From contig CP076357.1 of the NCBI GenBank assembly GCA_018798825.1, positions 310,001 to 374,000 of the forward strand: a stretch of DNA of 64,000 nucleotides, in the 5' to 3' direction. Under the pieces are notes generated by a model. The model made no database searches. It was not told where the DNA came from and saw nothing but the letters and a program-made list of their open reading frames with translations. A program made the position numbers and the translations under genes. This document shows positions 35,514 to 55,948 of the stretch, one piece after another (within the stretch, counting starts at the first letter, position 1; each line of letters begins with the position of its first letter). The stretch is from Ochrobactrum sp. BTU1 (GTDB lineage Bacteria > Pseudomonadota > Alphaproteobacteria > Rhizobiales > Rhizobiaceae).

Positions 35514-36248
35514 TTAATGCGCAGTGCTTCTAGTAAGCTTTTCTTCCAAAGAAACAAAAGCGGCATTCAGAAGGATTGCAAGACTTGCCACAATAAAGCC
35601 GCCTTGCAGCACGAATGCGGTATTACCCGATAGAAGACCCGCAACAATTACTTCACCCAGTGTGCTTGCAGCGACGGTGGAGCCAATTGTGGCTGTGGAG
35701 AGGGAAATGATTGCGGCGAGACGAATTCCCGACAAAATGACGGGAAATGCGAGTGGCAATTCAACATTAAACAGCAATTCTCGATCAGTCATACCCATCC
35801 CACGACCTGCGTCCACGACTTCTGGATCAAGGTCGCTCAATCCAGTAAGTGTATTTTCGAAAATCGGGAGAAGTCCGTATAGCAACAGTGCGATGAATGC
35901 AGGAGTCGAGCCGAAACCAAAAATCGGTACTGCTATTGCAAGCACTGCGACGGGAGGGAAGGTTTGGCCTATATTGGCTATGGCACGCGATAGAGGGAGA
36001 AATTCTCGCCCGCTTGGGCGCGTTGTAAGGATTCCGAGAGAAACTGCGACGATCGTCGCGGTTACTGTGGCAAGAGCAACGAGGGCAAGATGGTGAATGG
36101 TAAGTGCTAACAATGAGTTCTGAGTATAGATCGCCGGTGCGTTGTTTCTGGTGAACGGGGCGAGAAAACTCGCAAAAAACTCTGGTTTAACGATGAAGAC
36201 ACAGAGAAAGATCAGCAGGGCTGCCTTCAAGAATGCACCAATCTTCAT
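35514..36248 (-). CDS. Quaternary-amine ABC transporter permease (YehW/OpuBB type)
   Basis: A 244-residue inner-membrane permease of the osmoprotectant family, matching E. coli YehW in length. It has about six helices and the EAA-like loop GRGMGMTDRELLFNVELPLA. It is the last gene of a four-gene minus-strand operon with the order binding protein, long permease, ATPase, short permease, which is the YehZYXW set. Its start overlaps the ATPase stop by four bases. Near the divergent catabolic operon it is likely to import a trimethylammonium compound, possibly ergothioneine. Confidence 0.9.
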   Translation of the reverse strand: MKIGAFLKAALLIFLCVFIVKPEFFASFLAPFTRNNAPAIYTQNSLLALTIHHLALVALATVTATIVAVSLGILTTRPSGREFLPLSRAIANIGQTFPPVAVLAIAVPIFGFGSTPAFIALLLYGLLPIFENTLTGLSDLDPEVVDAGRGMGMTDRELLFNVELPLAFPVILSGIRLAAIISLSTATIGSTVAASTLGEVIVAGLLSGNTAFVLQGGFIVASLAILLNAAFVSLEEKLTRSTAH

Positions 36249-37183
36249 GCGAGCCTCCGAGCATGCTCTTCAATTGACGAGCGCGTTATCCGTCCAATAA
36301 GCGAACCATTATGGCTGACGGGCAGCTCAAGCCGCCCAGACGAGAGGCTTGCGCCGAGCGCTTCACGTAGAGAAGTTTGACTTGATATTGCTTCCCCCCC
36401 GGCTTGGCCAGGTTCAACAAGGCTTTCCACTTTTCTAAGCGATAACAAACGAAAGACTTTATCATTGCCGCCGCCAACAAGCGCTTGGACAAATTCGGTT
36501 GCTGGACGCGCGATTATTTCTTCTGGCGTGGCATATTGAAGAAGTCGGCCCTTATCCATCACCGCGATGCTCGAACCCAGCCGGATTGCTTCTTCCATGT
36601 CGTGGGTGACGAGTACAATTGTCGTTCCGTAGTGTTTCTGAATTGCGAGCAGGTCTTCTTGTGCCTTGTCACGAATAATGGGATCGAGCGCACCAAAAGG
36701 CTCATCCATAAGGAGAATTGCAGGGTTTGAGGCCAGCGCGCGCGCTACACCGATGCGCTGCTGTTGGCCGCCGGAGAGCTCATGGGGCATCCGATTACGG
36801 AAGGCTGCGGGATCGAGATGGAACAATGAAAGCAGTTCATCAACGCGTGCGTTGATTTTTCCCTTGTCCCAGCCAAGAAGCCTCGGAACGGTGCCAACAT
36901 TATCTGCAACTGTGCGATGAGGAAATAACCCATGCCCTTGAATGGCGTAACCAATACCGCGGCGGAGAATATGAGCAGGTAGCTCCCGGTTGTCCTTGCC
37001 ATTAATCTTGATTGTACCAGCGCTTGGTTCAACCAACCGATTAATCATTCGCATGAGCGTAGTTTTACCGGAGCCCGAAGTCCCTACGATCACGGCAAGT
37101 GCGCCAGCCTCAATCGTCAAAGTAACACTATCGACTGCGGTCTGTGCGCCGTATAGACGAGTGATATTGGAAATTTCGATCAT
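36245..37183 (-). CDS. Quaternary-amine ABC transporter ATPase (YehX/OpuBA type)
   Basis: A 312-residue ATPase with Walker A GTSGSGKTT, signature LSGGQQQRIGVARALA, Walker B ILLMDEPFGALDP and switch VTHDMEEA, characteristic of ProV/OpuBA-type importers. About 75 residues after the ATPase core form a C-terminal regulatory extension in the position of CBS domains, shorter than a full CBS pair. In relatives this region senses ionic strength or nucleotides. It forms an operon with the permeases on either side. Confidence 0.92.
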   Translation of the reverse strand: MIEISNITRLYGAQTAVDSVTLTIEAGALAVIVGTSGSGKTTLMRMINRLVEPSAGTIKINGKDNRELPAHILRRGIGYAIQGHGLFPHRTVADNVGTVPRLLGWDKGKINARVDELLSLFHLDPAAFRNRMPHELSGGQQQRIGVARALASNPAILLMDEPFGALDPIIRDKAQEDLLAIQKHYGTTIVLVTHDMEEAIRLGSSIAVMDKGRLLQYATPEEIIARPATEFVQALVGGGNDKVFRLLSLRKVESLVEPGQAGGEAISSQTSLREALGASLSSGRLELPVSHNGSLIGRITRSSIEEHARRLA

Positions 37184-37194
37184 GGAGCCCGCTC

Positions 37195-38382
37195 CTAATT
37201 CCGTTGTCCACGGCTGATTTCAATTATTGCATCTAGTAAAATGGCTGCAATGAATGCCATGGCGACCGTAGGCAGGGCGCCGAGTAGTACCAAATCTGTG
37301 GCGGTTTGGGCGATGCCTTGGAACACAAACGTTCCCAAACCACCACCCCCGACAAGGCCGGCAATGACGGCTAAACCTATATTCTGTACCAGCACGACGC
37401 GAATTCCTGTGAGGATCACCGGAAAAGCCAACGGTAATTCAACCGATAACAACCGTTGGCGCCGCGTCATCCCAACCCCGCGGGCAGCATCCACCACAGA
37501 CTGAGCAACGTTATCGAGTCCGGTAACTGTAGCAGAGACGATAGGGAGCAACGCGTAGGCAATCAACGCGATGAGTGCCGGCGCTGGACCGATGCCGGCA
37601 ATGCCAAGTTTCGCAGCCCCCGGAAGATGCGTTCCTATCCAAGCCAATGGCGCTATCAGAACACCGAACAATGCCATCGATGGAATTGTCTGAATGACAT
37701 TGAAGAATGAAATAACAGGATCGCGCAAACGTCCGAAATTGTGAATTAATATTCCGATTGGTGTGGCTATGACGAGTGCTGCGAAGAGCGATCCGACAGA
37801 AAGAAAGGCGTGTGTACTAAGCGCGCCTGTAAAGGCATCACGCCGAGATGCGAATTCTTTCAGGATGGAAATGTCGGACCAGACGCCGGAGAACAGAAAA
37901 GCCGTCAACAAGAGAACGAAAATGCCAAGCGCCGCCAAACGCAGAAGTGGTTTCAGCTGCATGCGCACCAACGTATCTCCGATCGCAAGGGCAAGAGCAA
38001 AAAGCATGAGCCAAAAGCCAGCGCCGGGGGATATCCGGGCATAATTATTACCGGCAGGTGTAAGAAACGTAGCGCTCAGGCCGATACCAAGTCCGGCCAT
38101 GATTATTGTTACGAGCAGAACGGCTAGTCGCAGTTTCAATGATGACCGATTAGCCATTACAACGCTGGAGACGAGGATTAGCCCGGAAAGTGCGAAAGAA
38201 GGGAGAAGGGGCAGGGCATTTAAGATATACACTGGCGCCGTTGCAGCCACGCGGTTTGGCCTAACGAGAGCGAACGGCTGAATGACCAGCGCCAGTATCA
38301 ACAGTAAAGCAATAACCGTTCCTAAACGGTCTAGGGTGAAAAGTGAGGGAGCAGCGGCAGTTCTTCCTGCGCTAGTTTGCAT
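37195..38382 (-). CDS. Quaternary-amine ABC transporter permease, long form (YehY type)
   Basis: A 395-residue permease like YehY, with several extra N-terminal membrane segments before the canonical channel domain. The EAA-like loop is GVGMTRRQRLLSVELPLA. Together with the short permease it would form a heterodimeric channel. The gene is separated from the ATPase gene by 11 bases and from the binding-protein gene by 127 bases containing two hairpins. Confidence 0.9.
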   Translation of the reverse strand: MQTSAGRTAAAPSLFTLDRLGTVIALLLILALVIQPFALVRPNRVAATAPVYILNALPLLPSFALSGLILVSSVVMANRSSLKLRLAVLLVTIIMAGLGIGLSATFLTPAGNNYARISPGAGFWLMLFALALAIGDTLVRMQLKPLLRLAALGIFVLLLTAFLFSGVWSDISILKEFASRRDAFTGALSTHAFLSVGSLFAALVIATPIGILIHNFGRLRDPVISFFNVIQTIPSMALFGVLIAPLAWIGTHLPGAAKLGIAGIGPAPALIALIAYALLPIVSATVTGLDNVAQSVVDAARGVGMTRRQRLLSVELPLAFPVILTGIRVVLVQNIGLAVIAGLVGGGGLGTFVFQGIAQTATDLVLLGALPTVAMAFIAAILLDAIIEISRGQRN

Positions 38383-38417
38383 AATGTGTCCTACTCACCG
38401 GCAAAGAAAGTCGATTA

Positions 38418-38502
38418 CCGCGCGCATCAAGGTTCGCGCGGCATGCGAAGATTTGTGGGAAAGTCCCCAGGCTTGGATTCTGCCGAAACGACTATTCGGC
38501 AG
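38418..38502 (-). promoter_or_regulatory. Two stem-loops between binding-protein and permease genes
   Basis: CTGCCGAA/TTCGGCAG (38480-38487 and 38495-38502, loop of 7) lies 7 bases after the binding-protein stop. CCGCGCG/CGCGCGG (38418-38424 and 38435-38441, loop of 10) lies nearer the permease. Neither is followed by a T-run. They may stabilise the upstream mRNA or attenuate transcription so that the binding protein is made in excess. Confidence 0.6.
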
Positions 38503-38509
38503 GGTCGCT

Positions 38510-39427
38510 TCATTTCAGAAAGCCCTTGGTCGTGAGATAGTCACGAGCGACATCCGCTGCGGGTTCGCCTCCGACTTGAACGCGACCGTTCAAATCCTGT
38601 AGGTTTTCGAGCGTGAAAGATTCGAAAACTGGCTTGAGGATTTCCGCAATTTTGGGATATTCCTTCAAGGTAGCTTCGCGAATAATTGGCGTGGGCAGGT
38701 AAACTGGCTGAACGCCTTTGTCATCCTGCAGCACGACGAGGTCCGCAGGAGCGATACCGCCATCGGTACCATACACCATCGCCGCATTGGCACCTGAAGT
38801 CTGCTGCGCCGCAGCGGCAATAGTTGCTGCAGTATCTCCACCTGAAAGCGTGATGAGTTGATCCGGCTTAAGAACGAAACCATAGGCAGTTTGAAACGCG
38901 GGCAGGGCTGTCGCCGAGCTTACAAATTCTGATGATGCCGCCAGCTTTACGCCACCGCCCGATGCCACGAATTTACCGAAATCCGTAAGTGTCTTCAGGC
39001 TGTCCTTTTCCGCAAGGTCACGTCTTACCGCTATTGCCCAGGTATTATTGGCATTTGCAGGGGTTAGCCAGACAATCTTATTGGCCTCGAAGTCGAGCTT
39101 TTTGGCTTCTTCATAGCCAGCGTCTGCCTTGTTCCAGACTGGCAAATCGCCTTTATTGAAAAAGAATGCAGCATTTCCGGTATATTCCGGATAGATGTCA
39201 ATCTGCCCCTGAATTATCGCTTCACGAACGATGGGTGTTGCGCCGAGCTGGATCTTATCGACAACGCCGATATCGTTGGCCTTCAGCACCTGGGAGATTA
39301 TATTGCCCAAAACGCCGCCTTCGGTGTCAATTTTTGAACCGACAACCACGTCGGCCGCGAGTGCAAAACTGCCGCCATATACAGTGCCGGCTACGAAACC
39401 AGCCAAAATGAGCATCGCTTTCATCAT
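38510..39427 (-). CDS. Quaternary-amine-binding periplasmic protein (YehZ/OsmF type)
   Basis: A 305-residue class F binding protein (OpuAC family) with a Sec signal peptide (MLILAGFVAGTVYGGSFALA) and length equal to OsmF. Typical stretches are VVVGSKIDTEGGVLGNIISQ at the mature start, IDIYPEYTGNAAFFF in the hinge region and VYGTDGGIAPADLVVL. Relatives bind glycine betaine, choline or, in the EgtU group, ergothioneine. I cannot read the aromatic cage with certainty. Its operon is flanked by the regulator and catabolic genes of a probable ergothioneine pathway, so that ligand is the favoured guess. Confidence 0.9.
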   Translation of the reverse strand: MMKAMLILAGFVAGTVYGGSFALAADVVVGSKIDTEGGVLGNIISQVLKANDIGVVDKIQLGATPIVREAIIQGQIDIYPEYTGNAAFFFNKGDLPVWNKADAGYEEAKKLDFEANKIVWLTPANANNTWAIAVRRDLAEKDSLKTLTDFGKFVASGGGVKLAASSEFVSSATALPAFQTAYGFVLKPDQLITLSGGDTAATIAAAAQQTSGANAAMVYGTDGGIAPADLVVLQDDKGVQPVYLPTPIIREATLKEYPKIAEILKPVFESFTLENLQDLNGRVQVGGEPAADVARDYLTTKGFLK

Positions 39428-39486
39428 TCGTTCTCCCTCACAGTCAGACGCTGTTTGAATTGCACGCTATTTAAAAACACAGAATA

Positions 39487-39498
39487 GGGATATATCCC
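39487..39498. promoter_or_regulatory. 12-bp palindrome upstream of the quaternary-amine importer
   Basis: GGGATATATCCC is a perfect palindrome about 60 bases upstream of the binding-protein start, in the gap after the LysR-like gene. It could be an operator. No partner copy was found near the catabolic operon, so the assignment is weak. Confidence 0.3.
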
Positions 39499-39588
39499 AG
39501 ATTGCGAACACCGGATGCCTCAACGAGTTTTCGGCGCTATGTGTATGATTTATAAGCTCCGTAAACACCCCTTCCGAGAAATTAAATT

Positions 39589-40758
39589 CTACTCGATATC
39601 CTCTTTAAGAAGTCCAATGACTTCATTTAACATTGCTGAAGTGAAAGTGTTCCGGCGCCATACAAATGAAAGTATCTGACGGTACTCGGGCCCCAGCGGA
39701 ATTTGAGTAATTGGGAACGGCAGCCGCGCGACAACTGGCTCTGGCAAGATCGAGAGATAGCCATGTCGCGTAACCAAATTAATGATCACCGGAATGGAAT
39801 CCATTTCGATCAAGCGCAGTTTTGATGGGCGCACGGGTCCCAAGACGCTTTCGAGATAGCGCACAGCACTTTGTCTAATTCCACTTTTCAAACTCGGCAG
39901 CGCTATTGGGTGGCTTTGCAGAAATGAAACGATATTGTCAGAAAGTCCGGCCATGACACGCTGATCGCCGATCAATGCCAACGGGATATTTGAAACAATT
40001 CGCCCGTCAAAGTCCTTTGAAAAGTTTCCGTGATCAATAAGTACGGCGTCATATCGTCGGCTTTTTAATCCTGACGTCAATTCGTCTGCGGTATTCGCCG
40101 AAATCGAGAGTGGTTGCCGAGGATATAGGCGTTCCCAACCCGCAGTCAGGTTTGCAAGTATCTGAGCAATGTTGCTCTCATGCCCAAGTGGCATAACAGA
40201 GCCGATCCTGCAGGTTGCGAGATTGTGGCGAAAACGATCTGCGGATGCGTGTGAGAGCTCTTCCCATTTCGCTGTGAGGCTTTCAACTATTTCCAGTGCC
40301 ATCGCACCTTCTACTGTACAATTAACACCAGTTCGCATCCGATCAAAGAGTTTGCAATTAAGATTACGTTCGAGGTCGGAAAGCTGTCGCGTTAGTTGAG
40401 GTTGACCCATGTTCAGATTTTTTGCGGCGGCCCGAATGCTGCCGGCTTTGGCTGCGGTCACAAAGCGCACGAGTGCAGTGATGGTGATTGTTGGTCGATG
40501 ATCACCTGTGCTGCCGATCGAAAACAATTTACGAATGAGCGCGCTTGCTTCTTCAAACAGCCGCAAACGGTTTTCTGCCTCCAATGTCAAGGTCAGTACG
40601 CTACCCTCCCGTCGTAACAGCGGAAATGCAAGCGCGCTTTCCATACGCTCTAAAGAGGCACTCACCGTCGATGGTGCTCGTCCTTCCAGACGGCCTGTTT
40701 CACGAATAGAGCATGTCGCCAGCAATGAGTTTATCGTGAGTATAGTGCCGAGATCCAT
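39589..40758 (-). CDS. LysR-like regulator with two helix-turn-helix domains
   Basis: A 389-residue regulator, about 80 residues longer than typical LysR proteins. Residues 1-65 form a divergent LysR-type helix-turn-helix (INSLLATCSIRETGRLEGRA, PSTVSASLERMESALAFPLL). Residues about 88-150 form a second, more canonical one (TALVRFVTAAKAGSIRAAAK, MGQPQLTRQLSDLERNLNCK). A normal effector-binding domain follows. It lies between the importer operon, on the same strand downstream, and the divergent catabolic operon, and probably controls both. A tandem DNA-binding region is unusual; sequencing error is unlikely because one frame covers everything. Confidence 0.88.
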   Translation of the reverse strand: MDLGTILTINSLLATCSIRETGRLEGRAPSTVSASLERMESALAFPLLRREGSVLTLTLEAENRLRLFEEASALIRKLFSIGSTGDHRPTITITALVRFVTAAKAGSIRAAAKNLNMGQPQLTRQLSDLERNLNCKLFDRMRTGVNCTVEGAMALEIVESLTAKWEELSHASADRFRHNLATCRIGSVMPLGHESNIAQILANLTAGWERLYPRQPLSISANTADELTSGLKSRRYDAVLIDHGNFSKDFDGRIVSNIPLALIGDQRVMAGLSDNIVSFLQSHPIALPSLKSGIRQSAVRYLESVLGPVRPSKLRLIEMDSIPVIINLVTRHGYLSILPEPVVARLPFPITQIPLGPEYRQILSFVWRRNTFTSAMLNEVIGLLKEDIE

Positions 40759-40798
40759 AATTCCCCCAATTCCACGACAAGAAAACCCTCCAGCTGAC

Positions 40799-40829
40799 TG
40801 TCATATCGGACCCGCGGTTTCGTATGACA
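40799..40829. promoter_or_regulatory. Candidate operator in the divergent regulator/catabolic promoter region
   Basis: TGTCATA at 40799-40805 and TATGACA at 40823-40829 form a perfect 7-bp inverted repeat with a 17-base spacer, 41 bases upstream of the regulator start and 182 bases before the catabolic operon. The wide spacer would suit a protein with two DNA-binding domains. No other strong element is seen in the 252-base gap. Confidence 0.4.
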
Positions 40830-41010
40830 TGCGTGTTGGAAACTGCCGGTTAAATCCGATCATGGGGTTCAACAGCTTGCGTCAGCCCAAAGGTTCGCCC
40901 TGACCGATAAACTATATTCGAACATCACGCGTTCGCAAGATGGGATATGCCTTAAGCGGGTTTAGTCAGATAGACTTGCTTCAAAGGCCTAATTTAAAGG
41001 TATCGAGATA

Positions 41011-42603
41011 GTGCAGATTGTGTTGAATGGGCAGCCTCTCGGCTTCGCCGAAATGATGAAAATCGGAAACGGAGATGCCCTGGTTGTTGCATCGCCAGAA
41101 GGGATGGAGCGTGTTCGATCATCACGTGCTATCCTCGAGGAGGCTATTTATAACGGCGTTCCGGTCTATGGCAGCACGACTGGCGTAGGGGCAATGAAAG
41201 ACGTCAATTGGTCGAGCGATGAGCTTGATGAATTCAATATGGGTCTTGTTCGGGCGCATCACTTCGGTACCGGCGCTGCTTTTCCACCTTCCACCGTACG
41301 AAAAGCGATCGCAATTCGGATAAATACGATTTTGACGGGCCAAGTTGGCTGCACAGCTGAGCTTGTCGATGCATATCTGGAGCTGTTGCGCGAGGACGTT
41401 ATTCCTGTTGTCAGGCGTACAGGTTCCATCGGCTGTGCCGATATTGGTCTAATGGGGCAAATTGGTGCTGTATTAACCGGTGTAGGTGAGGCTACCTACC
41501 GCGGTGAGCGAATGCCCGCGGCTGACGCTTTGGCGCGGGCTGGGATGCGACCGCATCGAATGGCGCCCCGTGATGCGTTGGCGTCGCTTTCAGCCAATGC
41601 GGTAAGCTTTGCCGCGGCGGCCCGCGCACTTCGAGATGCCGCGTCAGTTATTCGGGTGATGCTTGCAACCAGTTTTACAGCCTCGGGTGCACTTGGGGCC
41701 TCTACGGACCCGTGGCTTGCCGCTTGCCACGTCGGTACGCCACGGGAGGCCCTTGTTGGTAAATGGTTTTATGACGCAGCGGCGACTTGGCGGTGGCCTG
41801 TATCCACGCAGGTGCAAGACCCACTAAGTTTGCGAATGGTGGCGCAAGTCTTTGGCGCAATTATTGAAAGTCTACTGGGTGCTGGCTACAAGATTCTGCA
41901 ATCAACAGGCCGTTCAGACGATAATCCTGTCGTTGTTGAGGGACGAATTATCACTTCCGGGGGGTCGCTGCCGCTCGACGTGACCATACTGTTGCAGTCT
42001 GCTTCGCTCTGCCTTGCTCACGCAGCACGCAATGCATTCAATCGATGTGTTCTCCTGGGGAACGGTCACCGCCGCGGTCTACCGCTTAACCTCGTTCCAG
42101 AGGGTAAGATTGCAACTGGGTTTGGCCCCATTATCAAGCTCGCAGGGGAAATATTTTCACGCGTCCTATCCCTTAGCAATCCAGTTTCAGCTCAGTCACT
42201 TGTCGTCGCTGGCGGCATGGAAGACGAAGCAGCATTTTTGCCATTGGTAATTGAGCGGTTTGAGAGACAGGTTGAAGCCATCAAGCGGTTGGCAGCACTA
42301 GAAGCACTTTTGTCATCACAGGCCATAGATATCCTTAATGACAAACCTCAAGGTATTGCACGTCTCATTTACGAACAGGTGCGCAAATGTTCTTCATTCT
42401 ACGACAAGGACAGACCGCTTTCTGCCGAAGTGGAATGTATTGAGGAACTGATTTGTTCAGACGCAGTCGTAGCGCAAATCATCGAGATTGCGCCCATTAA
42501 CAGCATCGATGACTTCTTTGCATTAGGGACTGCACCAGAAGGCAGTCCCGAGGCGATACGGGCAAAGGTCGTTGTTGCGACACCGGCTTTCAAAGAGAAC
42601 TGA
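41011..42603 (+). CDS. Ammonia-lyase-family enzyme without the MIO motif, probable ergothionase (ergothioneine trimethylamine-lyase)
   Basis: A 530-residue member of the histidine/phenylalanine ammonia-lyase superfamily. The catalytic tyrosine loop is kept (VYGSTTGVG, Y53), as are QDPLSLR and SDDNPVV. The Ala-Ser-Gly triad that cyclises to the MIO group is replaced: GSIGCADIGLMG has C142-A143-D144 there, and the usual NFHG stretch is also changed. Without MIO it cannot remove a primary amine in the normal way. Ergothionases, which eliminate trimethylamine from ergothioneine to give thiourocanate, are MIO-less members of this fold. The gene opens a five-gene operon containing a urocanase paralogue. 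The start is GTG at 41011. Hercynine or another betaine remains possible as substrate. Confidence 0.8.
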   Translation: MQIVLNGQPLGFAEMMKIGNGDALVVASPEGMERVRSSRAILEEAIYNGVPVYGSTTGVGAMKDVNWSSDELDEFNMGLVRAHHFGTGAAFPPSTVRKAIAIRINTILTGQVGCTAELVDAYLELLREDVIPVVRRTGSIGCADIGLMGQIGAVLTGVGEATYRGERMPAADALARAGMRPHRMAPRDALASLSANAVSFAAAARALRDAASVIRVMLATSFTASGALGASTDPWLAACHVGTPREALVGKWFYDAAATWRWPVSTQVQDPLSLRMVAQVFGAIIESLLGAGYKILQSTGRSDDNPVVVEGRIITSGGSLPLDVTILLQSASLCLAHAARNAFNRCVLLGNGHRRGLPLNLVPEGKIATGFGPIIKLAGEIFSRVLSLSNPVSAQSLVVAGGMEDEAAFLPLVIERFERQVEAIKRLAALEALLSSQAIDILNDKPQGIARLIYEQVRKCSSFYDKDRPLSAEVECIEELICSDAVVAQIIEIAPINSIDDFFALGTAPEGSPEAIRAKVVVATPAFKEN

Positions 42604-42645
42604 AACACGCATGAACCTCTGCGGAGGTGATTGAGGAGGATTGTA

Positions 42646-44034
42646 ATGTCCGATTTCGATCTGGTCCTACAGGGAACCGTCGTTCTCTCCGATCGCACAG
42701 TGGAGCGCGCATACGTGGCGGCGCGAGATGGTAAAATCATCCAGATAGGATCCGGCGAACCGCCTCAAGCCAGGGAGCGGCATCTTTTGGGCGATGCACT
42801 TATCATGCCGGGGGCAATTGATGCCCAAGTCCATTCGCTTTCTCAAAAAAATCAAGAGGATTTCATTTGGTCAACCCGCACTGCAGCGGCTGGTGGGGTC
42901 ACGACCATCGTCGATATGCCATATGATGAAGGTGATCTGATTTGCTCTGCAGAAGCAGTCAAACGCAAAGCTGCTCGTGCAAAAGAGCAGGCCTTTGTCG
43001 ACTTCGCGCTTTATGGCACTATTGACCCAATCGAAGGCTCAAAACGCATTTCTGAACAAGCGGAAGCGGGAGTTTGTTCGTTTAAATTCTCAACGTTTGG
43101 AACCGACCCAAAACGTTTTCCGCGCATTAATCCGCCGCTTTTGACCGATTGCTTTCGGGAGGTTGCGAAGACTGGTCTGGCTGCTGGCGTGCACAATGAG
43201 AATGAGGAGTATGTGCAGCACGCCATGGCAGCGGTAAAGGCTTCAGGCATTACCGACTACCGCGCGCATGGCATGTCGCGTCCGCCTTTAACTGAATTAC
43301 TTGCAATGACCGAAATTTACGAGATTGGTGCTGCTACCCACTGTCCGGCTCACGTCGTTCATTGCTCGCTTGCTCGCGGATACGAGATTGCTGCGTCGTA
43401 CCGCTTACAAGGTTACCATGCAACGGCTGAATGTCTTATTCACTATCTGATGCTGGATGAAGAGAGTGACGCGAGGCGGCTTGGCGGTCGCTCAAAATGC
43501 AACCCGCCATTGCGCCCCCGGGCAGAAGTCGAAAAGCTTTGGCGCGAACTGACTAACGGAAATATTTGGTTACTGTCCACTGATCATGTGAGCTGGTCAC
43601 TCGACCGCAAGACCAACCCCGATATGCTCGCAAATGCATCGGGCTTGCCCGGTTTAGAGACGCTAATTCCGTTATTTGTGAAAGGTGCTATCGAACGCGG
43701 CGTACCGCTGTCATGGGGAGCAAGGCTGATGGCTTTGAACCCAGCAAAGCACTTTCGGATTGATCATATAAAGGGAGCGCTTTCTCCGGGGCGAGATGCG
43801 GACATTTCGGTCCTGGTGCCGGAGCCTTATACCTATGACGCGGCCTCTTCGGGCAACAATGTCGCGGGGTGGTCACCTTTTGATGGGATGAGACTTCCTT
43901 ACAAAGTTGCGGCGACCTATGTGCGAGGTACCAAGGTCTATGATGGAAAGAATGTGATCGTACCTGCGGGAACGGGACAGTTTGTGCGCCCACCGCAACG
44001 CCACATCATTTCGGGTGCTCGAAATGGTGAGTAA
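42646..44034 (+). CDS. Cyclic amidohydrolase (hydantoinase/dihydroorotase-like)
   Basis: A 462-residue metal-dependent amidohydrolase of the hydantoinase/allantoinase group. The metal-binding elements are IDAQVHSL (Q61-V-H63, with Gln in place of the first His of HxH), the carboxylated-lysine segment CSFKFSTFG (K147), GVHNENE, AHVVHCSL and LSTDHVSW. The C-terminal beta-sandwich GALSPGRDADISVL is typical. I chose the ATG at 42646, which follows GAGGAGG; an upstream start would add five residues and bury that site. In the proposed pathway it would open the ring of hydantoin-5-propionate to give N-carbamoyl-glutamate. Confidence 0.85.
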   Translation: MSDFDLVLQGTVVLSDRTVERAYVAARDGKIIQIGSGEPPQARERHLLGDALIMPGAIDAQVHSLSQKNQEDFIWSTRTAAAGGVTTIVDMPYDEGDLICSAEAVKRKAARAKEQAFVDFALYGTIDPIEGSKRISEQAEAGVCSFKFSTFGTDPKRFPRINPPLLTDCFREVAKTGLAAGVHNENEEYVQHAMAAVKASGITDYRAHGMSRPPLTELLAMTEIYEIGAATHCPAHVVHCSLARGYEIAASYRLQGYHATAECLIHYLMLDEESDARRLGGRSKCNPPLRPRAEVEKLWRELTNGNIWLLSTDHVSWSLDRKTNPDMLANASGLPGLETLIPLFVKGAIERGVPLSWGARLMALNPAKHFRIDHIKGALSPGRDADISVLVPEPYTYDAASSGNNVAGWSPFDGMRLPYKVAATYVRGTKVYDGKNVIVPAGTGQFVRPPQRHIISGARNGE

Positions 44035-45280
44035 TCTCCCGGTTCAGGCCGATCGTGTCGCCTGTGATATCAATGATCTCGCCGCGATTACTGAAACGGA
44101 TAGACCTTGGACGCGGCGCGTATTCACGCCGCTCTATCTCGAAGGTCGATCCTACGTTGAAAAACGTATGCTGGCCGCTGGACTTGAGACGAGGATCGAT
44201 GCGGCTGGAAATTTGATTGGTTTTCGAAAAGGTTTAGCAAAGAAAGGCGTTATCATGTTGGGCTCTCACACCGACACCGTTCCAAATGGCGGTCGGTTTG
44301 ATGGTGTGGCAGGCGTTGTGGCCGCGCTCGAAGTTGCTCGTTCCCTTCACGACAATAATATTGAGCTGCAACATGACTTGGAAATTGTCGACTTCTTGGC
44401 GGAAGAAGTCAGCCCGTTCGGGGTTTCCTGCATCGGAAGCCGTGGCATGACGGGACAATTGCCGAAATCATGGCTGGACCGGGTGAATGCTGGTCGAACA
44501 CTTCACGAGGAATTAGGTGGGGTGGGAGGCAATGGAGATATCGTTCTGGGTCAAAGACGCGCCGACATAAAGGCTTTCTTGGAACTTCATATCGAGCAGG
44601 GCCCGGTGCTTGAGGATGAGCGTAAGGATATCGGTCTGGTTACAACAATCGTTGGTATTAGCCGATTTGAAATCATCATTGAGGGGCGTGCAGATCACGC
44701 AGGAACTACGCCAATGACAAAGCGCGCGGATGCTCTTGTTGCAGCCGCAAAATTGACGCTTGAAATAAGACAAAGGGCTACGGAAATTTCGACAGAGGGC
44801 GGTCATTTTACTGCAACCGTTGGCGAATTCAGTATTGAACCAAACGCCGCCAATGTAGTGCCGTCCTCAGCGCGACTGTTAATTGATGCTCGGGCTGAAT
44901 TGCGCGCGGATATGGACAGATTCACAGCTTGGCTGGACCTCCTATGTGCACAACTCTCCCGGGATTATGCCGTATCTATTCCGGCAGTTAACCGTGTATC
45001 GGACAATGACCCAGCACCGAGCGACTTGATGGTCCTCGAGCACCTTGAGCGAGCGTGTGGAACGGTTGGCGCTACCCATCGCCGCATCGCATCGGGTGCG
45101 GGTCACGACGCGGCATGGCTTTCCAAGGTAACACCAACCGCCATGATCTTCGTACCGAGTAAAGATGGGCGAAGTCACACGCCCGATGAGTGGACTTCAA
45201 TTGGTGAGATTACGTTGGGTGCGGCCGTGCTTTACGAAGCAGTACTCTCGTTGGATGAAACACTGTCAAACAAGCAATAG
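44024..45280 (+). CDS. M20-family Zn-dependent amidase (N-carbamoyl-L-amino acid hydrolase type)
   Basis: A 418-residue di-metal amidase of the group containing allantoate amidohydrolase and N-carbamoyl-amino acid hydrolases. Visible metal and substrate motifs are GSHTDTVPNGGRFDG, DFLAEEVSPFG, ELHIEQGPVLE, GRADHAGTTPM and SGAGHDAAWL. The ATG at 44024 overlaps the hydantoinase stop by 11 bases, showing tight coupling; a longer frame would add 14 unlikely residues. In context it should remove the carbamoyl group from N-carbamoyl-glutamate, releasing glutamate, carbon dioxide and ammonia. Confidence 0.87.
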   Translation: MVSNLPVQADRVACDINDLAAITETDRPWTRRVFTPLYLEGRSYVEKRMLAAGLETRIDAAGNLIGFRKGLAKKGVIMLGSHTDTVPNGGRFDGVAGVVAALEVARSLHDNNIELQHDLEIVDFLAEEVSPFGVSCIGSRGMTGQLPKSWLDRVNAGRTLHEELGGVGGNGDIVLGQRRADIKAFLELHIEQGPVLEDERKDIGLVTTIVGISRFEIIIEGRADHAGTTPMTKRADALVAAAKLTLEIRQRATEISTEGGHFTATVGEFSIEPNAANVVPSSARLLIDARAELRADMDRFTAWLDLLCAQLSRDYAVSIPAVNRVSDNDPAPSDLMVLEHLERACGTVGATHRRIASGAGHDAAWLSKVTPTAMIFVPSKDGRSHTPDEWTSIGEITLGAAVLYEAVLSLDETLSNKQ

Positions 45281-45289
45281 GAGTGTTAA

Positions 45290-46384
45290 ATGGGACGCAT
45301 TCTCGTTGAGAAAGACGTTGAGGCCGCAGTCAAGGGCGGCTCCGTTTATGCAGCTGGGGGCGGAGGCTGGGCTGACCACGGACGGATGTTAGGTTATGCC
45401 GCAGTGAATATTGGTAAGCCTGAACTCGTTGCTATCGATGAACTTGCCCCGGAAGACTGGGTGGCTACCGCAGCAGCCATTGGGGCTCCAGCCTCGACAA
45501 CACCATGGGAAATGCAGGGAGTAGATTACGTCAAAGCGGTAGATCTGTTGCAAAAGGCCCTTGGATCGCCGTTGAAAGGCCTGATCATAGGCCAGAATGG
45601 AAAATCATCAACCCTAAACGGCTGGCTGCCATCTGCAATACTCGGTACAAAGGTCGTCGATGCGGTCGGCGATCTTCGCGCGCATCCGACTGGCGACATG
45701 GGTTCTATCGGGATGGCGGCTTCACCCGAACCAATGATCCAGACTGCAGTCGGCGGAAATCGCTCAGAAAATCGTTATATTGAATTAACGGTGACAGGTG
45801 CTACAGCGAAGGTCTCTCCGATCTTGCGCGCCGCGGCAGACCAATCTGGCGGATTCATTGCATCCTGCAGAAACCCTCTGCGGGCTTCATACGTGCGCGA
45901 CCACGCAGCCTTGGGCGGCATTTCGATGGCTCTCAGTCTGGGAGAAGCTATCATCGCAGCTGAAGCTGCGGGTGGACATGCGGTTATCGATGCTATTTGC
46001 AAGAACACCGGAGGACACATTTTGTCGGAGGGTGTAATCAAGCAAAAAAAGGTGGTCTACACCAAGGAAGCCTTTGATATTGGTACCGTGACCGTTGGTG
46101 CAGGGAGCGATGCAGTTGTATTGCACGTCATGAACGAATACATGGCGGTAGACGATAACCAGGGGCATCGCCTGGCAACCTTTCCTTCGGTGATCACTAC
46201 TCTTTCGCCGCAGGGCCATCCATTAAGTGTGGGCGAATTGCATGAAGGAATGAAGATTTTCATCCTTCACGTCCCTATGAATACAATACCACTGTCCGCC
46301 AGTGTTCTAGACAGAACTGTCTATCCACCCGTTGAAAAGGCAATGGGGATCGAGATATCCAAGTATATTCAGGGAGTAAAGTGA
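45290..46384 (+). CDS. DUF917-family protein, candidate thiohydantoin desulfhydrase
   Basis: A 364-residue cytoplasmic protein of family DUF917, with the opening VYAAGGGGWADHGRML, the central LRAHPTGDMGSIGMAASPEP and DHAALGGISMALSLGEAI. DUF917 proteins commonly accompany hydantoinase genes and have no broadly established reaction. Here the operon supplies every other step from ergothioneine to glutamate. By elimination this protein is the best candidate to replace sulfur by oxygen in the thiohydantoin intermediate, releasing sulfide. It starts 9 bases after the amidase stop and overlaps the urocanase-like gene by four bases if that uses GTG. Confidence 0.82.
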   Translation: MGRILVEKDVEAAVKGGSVYAAGGGGWADHGRMLGYAAVNIGKPELVAIDELAPEDWVATAAAIGAPASTTPWEMQGVDYVKAVDLLQKALGSPLKGLIIGQNGKSSTLNGWLPSAILGTKVVDAVGDLRAHPTGDMGSIGMAASPEPMIQTAVGGNRSENRYIELTVTGATAKVSPILRAAADQSGGFIASCRNPLRASYVRDHAALGGISMALSLGEAIIAAEAAGGHAVIDAICKNTGGHILSEGVIKQKKVVYTKEAFDIGTVTVGAGSDAVVLHVMNEYMAVDDNQGHRLATFPSVITTLSPQGHPLSVGELHEGMKIFILHVPMNTIPLSASVLDRTVYPPVEKAMGIEISKYIQGVK

Positions 46385-48048
46385 TCATGCCCACAGAAAA
46401 CGCGCGTCATCCAAACTTCCCTATTCCAGGCGGTCAAGAGCTCCGGGCCAAGGGATGGCGACAAGAAGCGTTGTTACGTCTGCTTGAGAATGTGCTCGCT
46501 GTCGGCGAAGACCCAGAAAATTTGATTGTTTACGCAGCGCTTGGGAAGGCTGCACGGAGCTGGCCCGCGCATCGCGCTATTGTAAAAACCTTGTTGGAAA
46601 TGGATGAAAACCAAACCTTGCTCATTCAATCAGGCAAGCCAATTGGCATCGTTAAAACCCATGCCAAAGCGCCACTCGTCATCATGGCGAATTGCAACAT
46701 CGTCGGACAGTGGGCCAAAGCTGAGTATTTTTATGAGTTGCAGCGAAAGGGCTTGATTTGCTGGGGAGGGCTTACGGCTGGCGCCTGGCAATATATAGGC
46801 AGCCAAGGCGTCATCCAGGGCACTTATGAAATATTCATGCGGATCGCGCAAAAGCGCTTTAATGGTGACCTCGCTGGCCGTTTCATTCTGACTGCGGGCC
46901 TTGGAGGCATGGGCGGCGCCCAGCCGCTTGCTGGACACATGGCCGGCGCAGCCATCCTTTGCGTCGACATCGACCCTGTGCGTGCAAAGATGCGTAAAGA
47001 AATCGGTTACTTACAGGAGATAGCTCCTAATCTGGATTCAGCACTCACATTGATCGGTGAGGCCGTCAAAGCAAGACGTCCGCTTTCGGTTGGGTTGGTC
47101 GGTAATGCAGCCGAAATCTATCCCGAAATCGCTCGTCGCGGGATTGTGCCAGATATCGTCACGGATCAAACATCGGCGCATGATTTGGTCTATGGGTATG
47201 TTCCAAAAGGTATGAGCCTTACCGAAGTAAAGCAATTGCGCGTCCACGGGCAAGGGCAGTTGATGGCGGCGAGCAGGGCATCGATCGTGGAGCATGTCAG
47301 CGCGATGCTGAGCTTTCAGAAAAAAGGATCAGAAGTTTTCGACAACGGCAACTTGATCCGGACGCAAGCGAGGGAGGGCGGTGTCGAAAACGCATTTGAT
47401 ATTCCGATCTTCACGGAAGCTTATCTGCGCCCGCTTTTTGCCCGAGCCATTGGACCCTTTCGTTGGATGGCAACGTCGGGTGAAGAAACTGACATAGCAA
47501 AAATCGACGACGTAGTTTTAGAGATGTTTCCTGACAATCATATTGTCACCAACTGGATTTCGCTTGCACGCCAATACGTGCCTTTTGAAGGCCTTCCTGC
47601 ACGGATCGCTTGGCTCGGACACGGCGAAAGAACCGCACTTGCATTGCGCGTCAATCAAATGGTCGCAACTGGCGGATTGAAGGGGCCGATAGCATTCTCA
47701 CGGGATCATCTTGACGCAGGTAGTATGGCACATCCAAACATCATGACTGAAGGTATGAAAGACGGCTCTGATGCAATCGCTGATTGGCCTTTGATTGATG
47801 CGATGATGTTGAGTGCGTCGATGGCCGACCTTGTGGTTGTGCATTCAGGCGGTGGAGGCTATGCGGGTTACATGACAAGCGCTGGCGTCACTGTGATTGC
47901 GGATGGTACGACTGGGGCAGCCGAGCGGTTAGAGCACGCGCTTACAAATGATACGGCCCTTGGTGTGATGCGATACGCGGATGCAGGATATGAGGAATCG
48001 TTTGATGAGATCGCGAGGAAAAACATACCGTATATAGCCTCTTCATAA
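46381..48048 (+). CDS. Urocanase paralogue, probable thiourocanate hydratase
   Basis: A 555-residue protein clearly homologous to HutU, an NAD-dependent lyase in which the cofactor adds to the substrate. The NAD-binding stretch LGGMGGAQPLAGHMAG, the WGGLTAGAWQYIG region and DHLDAGSMAHPN are in place. At the position where HutU proteins, as I recall, read RICWLG with an active-site cysteine, this one reads RIAWLGHGER (Ala at residue 410). No histidine-utilisation genes for imidazolonepropionate or formiminoglutamate are nearby. It probably hydrates thiourocanate to the thiohydantoin propionate. The start could be GTG 46381 (GTGA overlap) or ATG 46387, two codons later. Confidence 0.88.
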   Translation: MIMPTENARHPNFPIPGGQELRAKGWRQEALLRLLENVLAVGEDPENLIVYAALGKAARSWPAHRAIVKTLLEMDENQTLLIQSGKPIGIVKTHAKAPLVIMANCNIVGQWAKAEYFYELQRKGLICWGGLTAGAWQYIGSQGVIQGTYEIFMRIAQKRFNGDLAGRFILTAGLGGMGGAQPLAGHMAGAAILCVDIDPVRAKMRKEIGYLQEIAPNLDSALTLIGEAVKARRPLSVGLVGNAAEIYPEIARRGIVPDIVTDQTSAHDLVYGYVPKGMSLTEVKQLRVHGQGQLMAASRASIVEHVSAMLSFQKKGSEVFDNGNLIRTQAREGGVENAFDIPIFTEAYLRPLFARAIGPFRWMATSGEETDIAKIDDVVLEMFPDNHIVTNWISLARQYVPFEGLPARIAWLGHGERTALALRVNQMVATGGLKGPIAFSRDHLDAGSMAHPNIMTEGMKDGSDAIADWPLIDAMMLSASMADLVVVHSGGGGYAGYMTSAGVTVIADGTTGAAERLEHALTNDTALGVMRYADAGYEESFDEIARKNIPYIASS

Positions 48049-49228: not shown

Positions 49229-50011
49229 ATGAAAATGAACGTTTCTCCGCAATTTAGCGTAAAGAGCAGTGAATTGGCGAACAATGCTCGTATTAGTGCT
49301 AGTGAGGGCACCCTTAGGCAAGAGGAAGCTAACGACAAATTATTGCCGTTACTCGTCATAATTGACAACCGGGCGTTGGATCGCGAATGTCTTGCCCATG
49401 GTTTAACGAACCATAGTATCGATATGACGATCGCAACCTTTAGCTCATTTGAGCAGTGGCAGCACCAGCGCCGTGGTCGTAGTGTCAGCGCCGTTCTATA
49501 CAACATAGGTGGGCAGAAAGTATCGGATCCAGCTGTTGGCAACTATCTTAATCGCGTTGTCAATGATTGTGCGCCAGCACCCGTTATCATTCTCGCTGAC
49601 AAGGAAGAAATTTCCCAAGTCCTAAAAGCCCTGGACTATGGTGTTAAAGGCTACATACCGACTTCGGTGAATGTAAATGTCTGCGTCGAAGCACTACGGT
49701 TGGCAATGGCTGGCGGCACGTTCGTTCCGGCAAGTAGTGTTCTCACGCTCCGCCATGCAAGTGATCCCAACTCCCATAGATTACAGCCTCTTGGTGGAAT
49801 GTTCACGCAACGTCAAGCTGAAGTTGTCAATGCGTTGCGTCGCGGTAAAGCAAACAAGATAATCGCCTACGAGCTCAAGCTGCGTGAAAGTACAGTGAAG
49901 GTTCATATCCGAAACATAATGAAGAAATTGAAGGCTTCGAACCGCACAGAAGTTGCTTGCATAATAAACGAACTGTTTCCATCAGAAACATCGTTCTCTG
50001 ATCTCCATTAA
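49229..50011 (+). CDS. LuxR-family regulator with a degenerate receiver domain
   Basis: A 260-residue regulator. Residues about 40-160 have the receiver-domain outline (LPLLVIIDNRALDRECLAHG, VIILADKEE, ALDYGVKGYIPTS), but the usual phosphorylated Asp is replaced in SAVLYNIGG, so it is probably not phosphorylated. The C-terminus is a standard LuxR helix-turn-helix (FTQRQAEVVNALRRGKANKI, then ESTVKVHIRNIMKKLKASNR). An ATG two codons later (49235) is an alternative start. It lies 64 bases upstream of the exopolysaccharide export genes on the same strand and probably activates them. Confidence 0.88.
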   Translation: MKMNVSPQFSVKSSELANNARISASEGTLRQEEANDKLLPLLVIIDNRALDRECLAHGLTNHSIDMTIATFSSFEQWQHQRRGRSVSAVLYNIGGQKVSDPAVGNYLNRVVNDCAPAPVIILADKEEISQVLKALDYGVKGYIPTSVNVNVCVEALRLAMAGGTFVPASSVLTLRHASDPNSHRLQPLGGMFTQRQAEVVNALRRGKANKIIAYELKLRESTVKVHIRNIMKKLKASNRTEVACIINELFPSETSFSDLH

Positions 50012-50075
50012 CGCTGGGCGCGTTTGACGTTCACTTGTTGTAGCGCAGAACCTGTTCCCACGAGGGAGGCACTTT

Positions 50076-52271: not shown

Positions 52272-53527
52272 GGAGGTTCACGGAATTCTCCCCGGCCAGA
52301 GCAGGTCTCGCACGCGTTATAAGAGCTAGTCTATTATCGAGTTGGCTTGCAATCGCACCAGGTCAAAGTGCTTATGCTCAATCTCAGGCTTATAAAGTCG
52401 GCCCCAATGATATCCTTCAAGTCACTGTTTACGGCCAGCCATCCTTAACGGGCCTGTACCCAATCGACGTTGATGGAAATATCGGTTACCCGGTTGTTGG
52501 AAATTTCAATGTGAGGGGCCTCACGACAACTGAGATTGGTGAAAAGCTCGCCAGTGTCCTGTCACAACATATTCCAGGCCTCACGGTAACTGCATCGATT
52601 AATCAGTATGCGCCAGTCTTCGTTGTCGGTGACGTTAAGTCCCCAGGTAAGTATGAATTCCGGCCAGGCATGGTTGCATTGGAACTTATGGCGCTAGGCG
52701 GTGGATCTGGCAAAGGTGAAGCGCCCGCAATTACTGCTGGAATGCAACTAATTACCGCACAACAGGAATACGCGGATTTGCAGATGCAGATCACAACAAC
52801 TAATATCCGCCGCGCTCGGTTTCAGGCCGAGCTCGAGGGCACTGAGTTTGTTTATGAACTTCCAGCAGCCACGCCTGCAAGTAAAGAATCGTTGTCTTTG
52901 AGCCAGCATATGCTGCTGGGTGAAAGAACCTTGTTTGAAGTACGGCGAAATAACCTAGCTGCTGAGCGTCAAGCGTTAGAGGCTCAATCTGCAAGCTATG
53001 GCGATGAAATTGAGACCCTACAGCAAAGCATAAAACTTCATGACGCCGAAATCTCGTTACTAGAGGAGAATGTTGCTTCGAGCAAATCCCTTGTTGATCG
53101 CGGTCTTGCCGCCAAGTCAAACCTTCGGGATATGGAGCGCGATCTTTCAGCGACGCGGCGCGATGCGCTTGAATTAGGTTCATTCCTGGCGCGTGCGCGA
53201 CAAAACCAGCTTGGCGTGCAACAACGAATAGCTAACTTGGTTGAGGTTCGCAAAAGTGATGCAGCCAACAATCTACAGGAGCTTGATCTGAATATTGCCC
53301 GCATGGAACTCAGAAGCAATGCCCAACTTCAAACAATGGCAGAGATTGCTAAGTCTTCTGGCAACATTTCCTCCTCCGATATGCGGAAGAATCTACTCTT
53401 TACAATCAGTAGGAATGTTGATGGGACATTCCAGGAAATAAGCGCGACTGAACGAAGTGATATACGGCCTGGAGATATCTTGCGTATAGAGTTCGATATG
53501 AGCAAGGTGACCGGCTCGCCGAGCTAG
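52268..53527 (+). CDS. Outer-membrane polysaccharide export protein (Wza/GumB/ExoF-like)
   Basis: A 419-residue exported protein. After a signal sequence (ASLLSSWLAIAPGQSAYAQ) come the Poly_export domain (YKVGPNDILQVTVYGQPSL, then DGNIGYPVVG) and an SLBB-type domain (APVFVVGDVKSPGKYEFRPG). A long coiled-coil region follows, unlike the short E. coli Wza but like rhizobial ExoF. No lipobox cysteine is visible. The ATG at 52268 overlaps the Wzc-like stop as ATGA, with GGGAG upstream. A terminator follows the gene. Confidence 0.9.
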   Translation: MRRFTEFSPARAGLARVIRASLLSSWLAIAPGQSAYAQSQAYKVGPNDILQVTVYGQPSLTGLYPIDVDGNIGYPVVGNFNVRGLTTTEIGEKLASVLSQHIPGLTVTASINQYAPVFVVGDVKSPGKYEFRPGMVALELMALGGGSGKGEAPAITAGMQLITAQQEYADLQMQITTTNIRRARFQAELEGTEFVYELPAATPASKESLSLSQHMLLGERTLFEVRRNNLAAERQALEAQSASYGDEIETLQQSIKLHDAEISLLEENVASSKSLVDRGLAAKSNLRDMERDLSATRRDALELGSFLARARQNQLGVQQRIANLVEVRKSDAANNLQELDLNIARMELRSNAQLQTMAEIAKSSGNISSSDMRKNLLFTISRNVDGTFQEISATERSDIRPGDILRIEFDMSKVTGSPS

Positions 53528-53554
53528 AGAACCAGATTTCATCTCATGATGAAT

Positions 53555-53582
53555 AAGGGTGCCGCTTAACAGTGGCACCCTT
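53555..53582. terminator. Bidirectional terminator between convergent polysaccharide operons
   Basis: AAGGGTGCC at 53555-53563 and GGCACCCTT at 53574-53582 form a 9-bp stem with a 10-base loop. TTGTT follows on the plus strand and TTATTC follows on the minus strand. It lies between the converging wza-like and fcl genes. Confidence 0.7.
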
Positions 53583-53651
53583 TGTTAGGTTATAATTATC
53601 GCATGGATTGTCTTGAATACCTGCAATCTTTATCATCGGACATCGCTCAAG

Positions 53652-55689: not shown

Positions 55690-55948
55690 CGTCTTCCCTC
55701 CGTCCAAATGTTTCGAAGTTCGATGATAGCGAATTCGAATGGCAACAGAACGGCTCCAAAACGGTAAGAATGTCTGCCCAGGCGTCTGATTGGATGAAGC
55801 ATGGCCGTAGCCCGCTAAGATCAACTTCGCCTAAAGAGGTAGTAACAACGCCTGCTGTTCGTGTTCCCTATTCCAATAGGCTTCTTGTGGGTCATTGGAT
55901 AAAATCGCCATGCTTCCAAAACGGCTCGAGCTGGAGAAAGTTGGAATC

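What the first reader, a model, noticed from the sequence alone, without database searches (positions are those of the whole stretch)
35514..48048. Probable ergothioneine uptake and catabolism island
A quaternary-amine importer operon, a double-HTH LysR-like regulator and a divergent five-gene operon lie together. The enzymes are an MIO-less ammonia-lyase homologue, a hydantoinase-like enzyme, an M20 carbamoylase, a DUF917 protein and a urocanase paralogue. Established chemistry from other bacteria: ergothionase gives thiourocanate plus trimethylamine, a hydratase gives a thiohydantoin propionate, sulfur removal gives hydantoin propionate, and ring opening and decarbamoylation give glutamate. 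Five steps, five matching families, plus a transporter suited to a betaine. The assembly as a regulated island in this kind of organism is inference.
Basis: partly seen in the sequence, partly recalled or inferred. Interest (0 to 1): 0.88.

Follow-up and report, generated by a model that had tools for sequence, protein, structure and literature searches.

The report
Ergothioneine uptake and breakdown gene island
A soil bacterium carries one gene island that most likely imports the mushroom antioxidant ergothioneine and breaks it down to glutamate, and the same kind of importer, an unusual double-headed regulator and its DNA switch recur in relatives, which makes them testable new parts of a known pathway.

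Summary
Four of five enzyme genes pass curated cut-offs of NCBIfam models named for this pathway: thiourocanate hydratase, thiohydantoin desulfurase, hydantoin-5-propionate amidohydrolase, N-carbamyl-L-glutamate amidohydrolase. The lyase lost the MIO triad by the same one-residue deletion as solved ergothionase 6s7j and shares its Ser and Lys signatures, but is only 26% identical. The genome has separate ordinary HutH and HutU-like genes.

The new evidence concerns uptake and control. In 16 of 29 regions fetched around hydratases, from four other families, an OsmF-type importer lies inside the enzyme operon. In six Rhizobium genomes with the importer elsewhere, it stands beside a related tandem-HTH LysR regulator (29-32% identical). 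A palindromic site, TTC-N7-GGGATATCCC, precedes lyase genes (core in 88 of 103) and those six pairs, but 0 of 31 OsmF importers without the enzymes. The window's copy has one changed base and is the only match in its genome.

The binding pocket lacks the known EgtU signature, so uptake specificity is inferred. The pathway is known; importer role, regulator and operator appear new.

The parts
35514..36248 (-). ABC permease 2 of the OsmF-type importer
   Evidence: PF00528; lies beside ATPase, permease 1 and binding protein in fetched relatives
36245..37183 (-). ABC ATPase (ProV-like)
   Evidence: PF00005; TIGR01186 277 bits, below its cut-off of 326.6
37195..38382 (-). ABC permease 1 with long N-terminal part
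   Evidence: PF00528 at residues 207-386 of 395
38510..39427 (-). Periplasmic binding protein, OsmF type, with quaternary-amine aromatic cage
   Evidence: NF049931 487/400 bits; cage residues Y82, W130, Y219, Y243 with N128, K32, E167; only match to itself in the genome
39589..40758 (-). Tandem-HTH LysR-type regulator, proposed controller of importer and enzymes
   Evidence: Two HTH_1 stretches plus LysR_substrate; two winged HTHs in the model, ten-residue means mostly 85-93 with dips to 67; relatives in ert loci
40932..40951 (+). Proposed operator TTCGCAAGATGGGATATGCC, 59 nt before the lyase start
   Evidence: Only match in the 5.88-Mb genome to a pattern widened to admit its changed base; within the window alone not significant (15 of 100 shuffles had a match with up to 1 mismatch); conserved position in three same-genus islands
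41011..42603 (+). MIO-less aromatic amino acid lyase homologue, proposed ergothionase (ergothioneine trimethylamine-lyase)
   Evidence: PF00221; best PDB match 6s7j ergothionase; signature residues
42631..44034 (+). ErtD-type hydantoin-5-propionate amidohydrolase (true start probably near 42646)
   Evidence: NF058538 760.1/600 bits
43982..45280 (+). ErtE-type N-carbamyl-L-glutamate amidohydrolase (true start probably near 44024)
   Evidence: NF058540 575.9/520; NF009531 653.1/486
45290..46384 (+). Thiohydantoin desulfurase (DUF917/S-Me-THD-like)
   Evidence: NF058529 587.3/440; S-methyl variant NF058532 268.7, below 450
46381..48048 (+). Thiourocanate hydratase (urocanase paralogue)
   Evidence: NF058530 1033.5/930; S-methyl variant NF058531 727.8, below 880; nearest PDB chain 7ned

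Best explanation
The island is a regulated ergothioneine scavenging and degradation unit. An OsmF-type ABC importer brings in ergothioneine, a histidine betaine. The MIO-less lyase removes trimethylamine to give thiourocanate. Thiourocanate hydratase adds water to give the thiohydantoin propionate. The DUF917-type desulfurase releases sulfide to give hydantoin-5-propionate. ErtD opens the ring and ErtE removes the carbamoyl group to give glutamate. A LysR-type regulator with two tandem helix-turn-helix domains binds TTC-N7-GGGATATCCC-like sites and coordinates importer and enzymes. Shown by computation: gene families, conserved linkage, co-distribution, conserved operator. Inferred: substrates, direction of regulation, inducer. 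The chemistry of the steps is established knowledge from other bacteria (recalled; not read here).
For: Curated equivalog hits over cut-off for four steps. Lyase: same one-residue loss in the MIO triad as 6s7j, N195 to S, Y280 to L, and K376 (6s7j chain index 383) where HutH has V; in 13 columns this class (20 rows) equals 6s7j and two untested relatives and differs from two HutHs, against 3 and 5 columns for the other groupings. Importer embedded lyase-sbp-perm-atp-perm-ErtD-ErtE-desulf-hydratase in 16 of 29 regions fetched around hydratases, from four families. Order sample of 397 genomes: OsmF (E to 1e-60) in 28 of 32 hydratase-positive versus 75 of 365 others, p = 2.7e-14; regulator (E to 1e-30) 19 of 32 versus 4 of 365, p = 2e-20. 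Rhizobium: regulator next to importer in 6 of 6 although the enzymes are elsewhere. Operator core upstream of 88 of 103 lyases, between regulator and importer in those six, and upstream of 0 of 31 OsmF genes from hydratase-negative genomes. Operator in 20 of 21 loci with the regulator and 0 of 4 usable loci without it.
Against: No experiment. The lyase is 26% identical to 6s7j and sits in a separate, long-branched class with Ser where 6s7j has Phe, and NCBIfam gave it no ergothionase model. The binding protein passes a glycine-betaine OsmF model, lacks the EgtU determinants (G244, F293, R379) and has the same cage as OsmF proteins from genomes without the enzymes; ert-linked OsmF proteins are not one clade. 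The window's operator has one changed base, and its match is not significant within the window alone. In the genome-wide pattern search, 8 of 26 hydratase-positive genomes had no match at a lyase or importer promoter, and more matches (32) lay elsewhere than at targets (24). Seven hydratase-positive genomes of one family (f15) have no detected regulator, and their three usable lyase upstreams lack the operator. One locus with the regulator lacks the operator (L171).
Confidence: 0.83

Rival explanations
1. The enzymes degrade ergothioneine, but the OsmF importer is an ordinary glycine-betaine or general betaine importer that only happens to lie here.
For: Passes NF049931 (glycine betaine OsmF) at 487/400 bits. 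OsmF is in 75 of 365 hydratase-negative order genomes. The cage is identical in linked and unlinked proteins. In the genus an OsmF match occurs in 32 of 35 genomes but the hydratase over cut-off in only 4, all of which also have OsmF.
Against: Importer genes sit inside the enzyme operon in four other families; in six Rhizobium genomes the importer stands beside the regulator and operator, while 31 importers from hydratase-negative genomes carry no operator.
Confidence: 0.25
2. The true substrate is ergothioneine sulfonate or S-methyl ergothioneine, not ergothioneine.
For: An ergothioneine-sulfonate route in Agrobacterium radiobacter is cited in PMC13405746 (passages seen; the original was not read). 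The regulator also occurs in clusters with another MIO-less lyase plus an ErtD homologue.
Against: Hydratase and desulfurase pass the thio models and fail the S-methyl cut-offs. The alternative clusters show neither enzyme in the 18-kb stretches and their genomes have no hydratase over cut-off; one (L221) has a UbiD-family enzyme, a type not among the island's ten genes.
Confidence: 0.08
3. An alternative histidine degradation operon (a paralogous hut set).
For: Lyase and hydratase belong to the HutH and HutU superfamilies.
Against: The MIO triad is lost; the genome has a separate HutU-like gene scoring under the thiourocanate cut-off and an ordinary HutH beside it; no island gene is of a formimidoglutamate type, and desulfurase, ErtD and ErtE are present.
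Confidence: 0.02

Closest known systems
Bacterial ergothioneine-to-glutamate pathway (ergothionase, thiourocanate hydratase, thiohydantoin desulfurase, ErtD, ErtE)
   Same: All five enzyme families; four pass curated NCBIfam cut-offs
   Different: The lyase belongs to a class only 26% identical to solved ergothionase 6s7j; here the set is joined to an OsmF-type importer and a tandem-HTH regulator
EgtU/EgtUV ergothioneine importer (PMC9732360)
   Same: OpuAC-type binding domain, aromatic cage, equivalents of Lys242, Asn339, Glu375, Tyr419, Tyr443
   Different: Separate binding protein and two permeases (EgtU is a permease-binding-domain fusion); G244 is Asp34, F293 is Tyr82, R379 is Ser171; only 95-100 bits to EgtUC chains
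OsmF/YehZYXW betaine importer
   Same: Same binding-protein family (NF049931 over cut-off); gene set as recalled
   Different: Embedded in, or beside the regulator and operator of, ergothioneine catabolism genes
LysR-type regulators
   Same: HTH_1 and LysR_substrate domains
   Different: Two complete N-terminal winged HTHs in tandem and a palindromic GGGATATCCC site with a TTC arm

Membership tests
Thiourocanate hydratase (NF058530) | Score over the curated cut-off and above the urocanase and S-methyl models | tested here: met
   1033.5 against 930; S-methyl 727.8 against 880; hutU 675.7 (its own cut-off 375 is also passed)
Thiohydantoin desulfurase (NF058529) | Score over the curated cut-off | tested here: met
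   587.3 against 440
ErtD (NF058538) and ErtE (NF058540) | Scores over the curated cut-offs | tested here: met
   760.1/600 and 575.9/520
Ergothionase | MIO triad absent and signature residues shared with 6s7j | tested here: met
   One-residue deletion, S194, L at HutH position 280, K376, E404
Ergothionase | Same subfamily as an assayed enzyme | tested here: inconclusive
   26% identity, separate class, Phe at HutH position 329 replaced by Ser; the class of the Burkholderia sp. HME13 ergothionase was not tested
Ergothionase | Releases trimethylamine from ergothioneine | not testable with these tools
   Needs an assay
EgtU importer | G244 and F293 specificity determinants | tested here: not met
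   Asp and Tyr in all 23 linked and 33 unlinked OsmF rows, window Asp34 and Tyr82
EgtU importer | Permease fused to the binding domain | tested here: not met
   Separate genes 35514-36248, 37195-38382 and 38510-39427
OsmF binding protein | Score over the NF049931 cut-off | tested here: met
   487.5 against 400
OsmF binding protein | Glycine betaine as physiological ligand | not testable with these tools
   No ligand data used
LysR-type regulator | N-terminal winged HTH and C-terminal effector domain | tested here: met
   HTH_1 (two stretches) and PF03466; the effector part of the model is of low confidence

The most novel reading that the evidence does not exclude
Hyphomicrobiales have a further route of ergothioneine import, an OsmF-type ABC system recruited to ergothioneine by operon position and by a dedicated operator rather than by the EgtU pocket. 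It is controlled together with degradation by a new LysR subfamily whose two tandem winged HTHs together read TTC-N7-GGGATATCCC. Many proteins annotated as glycine-betaine OsmF would then be ergothioneine or broad betaine binders.
Probability: 0.5. Interest if true: 0.68.

Novelty: new variant of a known kind. Interest (0 to 1): 0.56.

Why it matters
Ergothioneine is made by fungi and some bacteria and taken up by animals and microbes, but its fate in soil is little known (recalled). If right, this gives soil and root bacteria a complete scavenging unit. It also names a candidate importer outside the EgtU family and gives a regulator with a readable operator for finding further ergothioneine genes. 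In PMC13405746 (passages seen) a BLAST search with a Burkholderia ergothionase led the authors to call the enzyme rare, with the caveat that divergent homologues could be missed. The clusters found here include such divergent lyases in many Rhizobium genomes and other Hyphomicrobiales.

Tried and rejected
Considered and rejected: a paralogous hut operon (MIO lost; separate HutH and HutU-like genes); S-methyl ergothioneine (below both S-methyl cut-offs); the sulfonate route (clusters without hydratase and desulfurase nearby); EgtU membership. A third recurrent operator-like site in Rhizobium, and three similar hits checked in the same run, lie inside long open frames and were taken as chance (six places). 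The search for a pocket signature of ert-linked OsmF gave only a weak difference (EgtU position 274: G in 17 of 23 linked, A in 27 of 33 unlinked), and the window's protein has A; at EgtU 379 and 381 one of the two rows 4nd9 and 4wep has Arg and Asp as EgtU does. Literature: ten searches (listings) showed no open paper that joins OsmF with ergothioneine catabolism (one search listed one paper, on oral cancer) or describes this regulator; the papers on the enzyme steps (Seebeck, Muramatsu, Yan) were not found there and are recalled or seen only as citations. Two R. leguminosarum transcriptome papers, searched by term in the main text only, had no passage naming these genes under the terms used. 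EgtD was not found in the genome, but none of the 14 control genomes was over its cut-off, so the search had no positive control. Trimethylamine disposal was not examined.

Limits of counts: the regulator search scored at most 4 candidates per genome, so 19 of 32 is a lower bound (G224 and G295 show a candidate). Loci are related, so counts are not independent events. The 103 lyase upstreams include genomes fetched twice (L003/L143, L069/L163 and L020/L164 by matching contig lengths) and three loci of other lyase types (L193, L197, L198), all three without the core. The operator word came from regulator upstream regions, which in some loci are also lyase upstream regions; of the 80 loci L003-L082, 74 have the core, and of these 80 only L060 and L003 (same genome as L143) belonged to the set the word came from. 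The core test was widened to admit the window's base.
Full report
WHAT IS THERE. The window is G000:C4:310001-374000 of a 5.88-Mb genome in four contigs; the best named match of the lyase is Brucella (Ochrobactrum) rhizosphaerae, 88% identical. Four enzymes pass curated NCBIfam cut-offs: ErtD 760/600, ErtE 576/520, thiohydantoin desulfurase 587/440, thiourocanate hydratase 1033/930; the S-methyl versions stay below their cut-offs. The genome also has a HutU-like gene that fails the thiourocanate cut-off (683 bits), with an ordinary MIO-bearing HutH near it.

THE LYASE. Against HutH numbering, the A-S-G triad has lost one residue, as in ergothionase 6s7j; N195 is Ser, Y280 is Leu, 311 is Asp, and a Lys conserved in 6s7j (chain index 383) replaces Val. 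In 13 columns this class (20 rows, 90% conserved) equals 6s7j and two untested relatives (L193, L197) and differs from two HutHs; the two alternative groupings have 3 and 5 columns. Still, it is 26% identical to 6s7j, has Ser where 6s7j has Phe at HutH position 329, and forms its own class in a tree with many long branches. Ergothionase activity is therefore a strong inference, not a demonstrated fact.

CONSERVATION OF THE ENZYME OPERON. Of 80 lyase loci from named genomes, the best 80 of 220 confirmed, 68 show lyase-ErtD-ErtE-desulfurase-hydratase in that order, 11 the lyase without the others (one, L039, ends soon after the lyase) and L082 lacks an ErtD match; the importer was seen beside the lyase in one, L003. 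In L068 and L004, the two annotated, ubiB (and in L068 ubiE) lies upstream. Of ten lyase-only genomes searched, 7 have the hydratase elsewhere, there with ErtE and desulfurase in 7 of 7 and ErtD in 3 of 7 stretches; the regulator and a full palindrome in 1 (L239). In 35 genomes of the window's genus the hydratase is over cut-off in 4, so the island is patchy. In a sample of 397 phylum genomes it is in 8, all of the window's family or order.

THE IMPORTER. Of 29 regions fetched around hydratases, 16 from four other families (f6, f10, f15, f24) show lyase-sbp-perm1-atp-perm2-ErtD-ErtE-desulfurase-hydratase (in several the region's end cuts the lyase). In the order sample of 397 genomes, 32 have the hydratase over cut-off. 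By coordinates, in 19 of these the importer is on the same contig within 20 kb, in 2 more contig ends separate the halves (G424, G289), in 6 Rhizobium and in G360 it is distant, and 4 lack it. OsmF at E to 1e-60 occurs in 28 of 32 positives and 75 of 365 others, Fisher p = 2.7e-14. The binding protein has the quaternary-amine cage (Y82, W130, Y219, Y243, N128) plus K32 and E167, but Asp for G244, Tyr for F293 and Ser for R379 of EgtU; the determinants are from PMC9732360, of which I read section 7 and passages found by term. Linked and unlinked OsmF proteins share this pocket (23 and 33 rows) and linked ones are not one clade (12 label changes, at least 5 forced by well-supported branches; shuffled mean 18.5). 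So the case for ergothioneine import rests on linkage and regulation, not on the pocket.

THE REGULATOR. It has two HTH_1 stretches; the model from three sequences (mean pLDDT 63.5) shows two complete winged HTHs with linker helices, confident for most of residues 1-170, and a poorly modelled effector part. At E to 1e-30 it is found in 23 of 397 order genomes: 19 of 32 hydratase-positive and 4 of 365 others, p = 2e-20. The four others are G368, with a partial hydratase match and a stop inside the regulator match, and three clusters with an ErtD homologue and another MIO-less lyase. In 6 of 6 ert-positive Rhizobium genomes of the sample it stands divergent beside the importer, away from the enzymes, at 29-32% identity.

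THE OPERATOR. Words shared by regulator upstream regions gave GGGATATCCC. The core GATATCCC lies upstream of 88 of 103 lyases, often near -70, in others at -118 to -184 by the start taken. It lies between regulator and importer in the six Rhizobium pairs, closer to the regulator (61-97 nt) than to the importer (about 345-383 nt), and upstream of 0 of 31 OsmF genes from hydratase-negative genomes. Among loci with usable upstream sequence, 20 of 21 with the regulator have it and 0 of 4 without (p = 0.0004 by hand). Genome-wide, TTC-N7-RRGATATSCC has 56 matches in 26 chosen genomes, all with the hydratase over cut-off; the reversed-pattern control has 4. By coordinates 24 are at lyase or importer-regulator promoters, in 18 of the 26 genomes, and 32 are elsewhere; the six elsewhere that I checked lie in open frames. 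In the window's genome the single match is 40932-40951, 59 nt before the lyase, with one palindrome base changed; the pattern was widened to admit that base, and in the window alone 15 of 100 shuffles had a match with up to one mismatch.

HOW IT WORKS. Import, then removal of trimethylamine, hydration, sulfur release, ring opening and decarbamoylation to glutamate. The step chemistry is established knowledge from other bacteria, recalled here. Because the regulator also accompanies clusters without hydratase and desulfurase nearby but with an ErtD homologue, an inducer common to both routes is possible; this is inference. No EgtD was found in the genome (without a positive control), which would fit scavenging rather than recycling of home-made ergothioneine.

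VERDICT. The pathway is known. The importer assignment, the tandem-HTH regulator and the operator are, as far as ten searches of an open-access library show (call numbers in Tried and rejected), not described; subscription papers could not be checked.

Noticed in passing
L221 (G338), L222 (G080), L223 (G114): Tandem-HTH regulator with an ErtD homologue and a further class of MIO-less lyase (triad A-S with one residue lost, N at 195, L at 280, C at 311, M at 329), without hydratase or desulfurase in the stretch; L221 also has a UbiD-family enzyme. Possibly the ergothioneine-sulfonate route.
   Followed up: partly
L192 (Paracoccus aminophilus), L194 (Thalassospira marina), L196 (Neorhizobium): Clusters with regulator, ErtD, ErtE, desulfurase and hydratase but no lyase in the stretch, beside TRAP (L192, L194) or amino-acid ABC transporters (L196); they may take up thiourocanate made by others.
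   Followed up: no
L004, L005, L016, L022, L034, L038, L041, L043, L049, L080: Rhizobial lyase without the other enzymes nearby; in 7 of the 10 genomes the hydratase lies elsewhere, so the pathway is split between loci.
   Followed up: partly
L146, L147 (G014) and L148 (G006): Same-genus relatives that keep the importer, and the CRP-like and LuxR-like flank, but lack the enzymes; G014 has a hydratase remnant and a regulator match in two pieces.
   Followed up: no
window 41011-42603: NCBIfam release 20.0 returned no ergothionase model for this lyase, only HutH-type and related models below cut-off, so automatic annotation will probably call it a histidine ammonia-lyase relative.
   Followed up: no
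window 38510-39427, residue 63: At the position that touches the thione sulfur in EgtU (274), 17 of 23 ert-linked OsmF proteins have Gly and 27 of 33 unlinked have Ala; the window's protein has Ala.
   Followed up: no
window 49229-59600: By eye from translations, a LuxR-type regulator followed by exopolysaccharide-type genes (Wzc-like, export, nucleotide-sugar and glycosyltransferase genes); unrelated to the finding.
   Followed up: no
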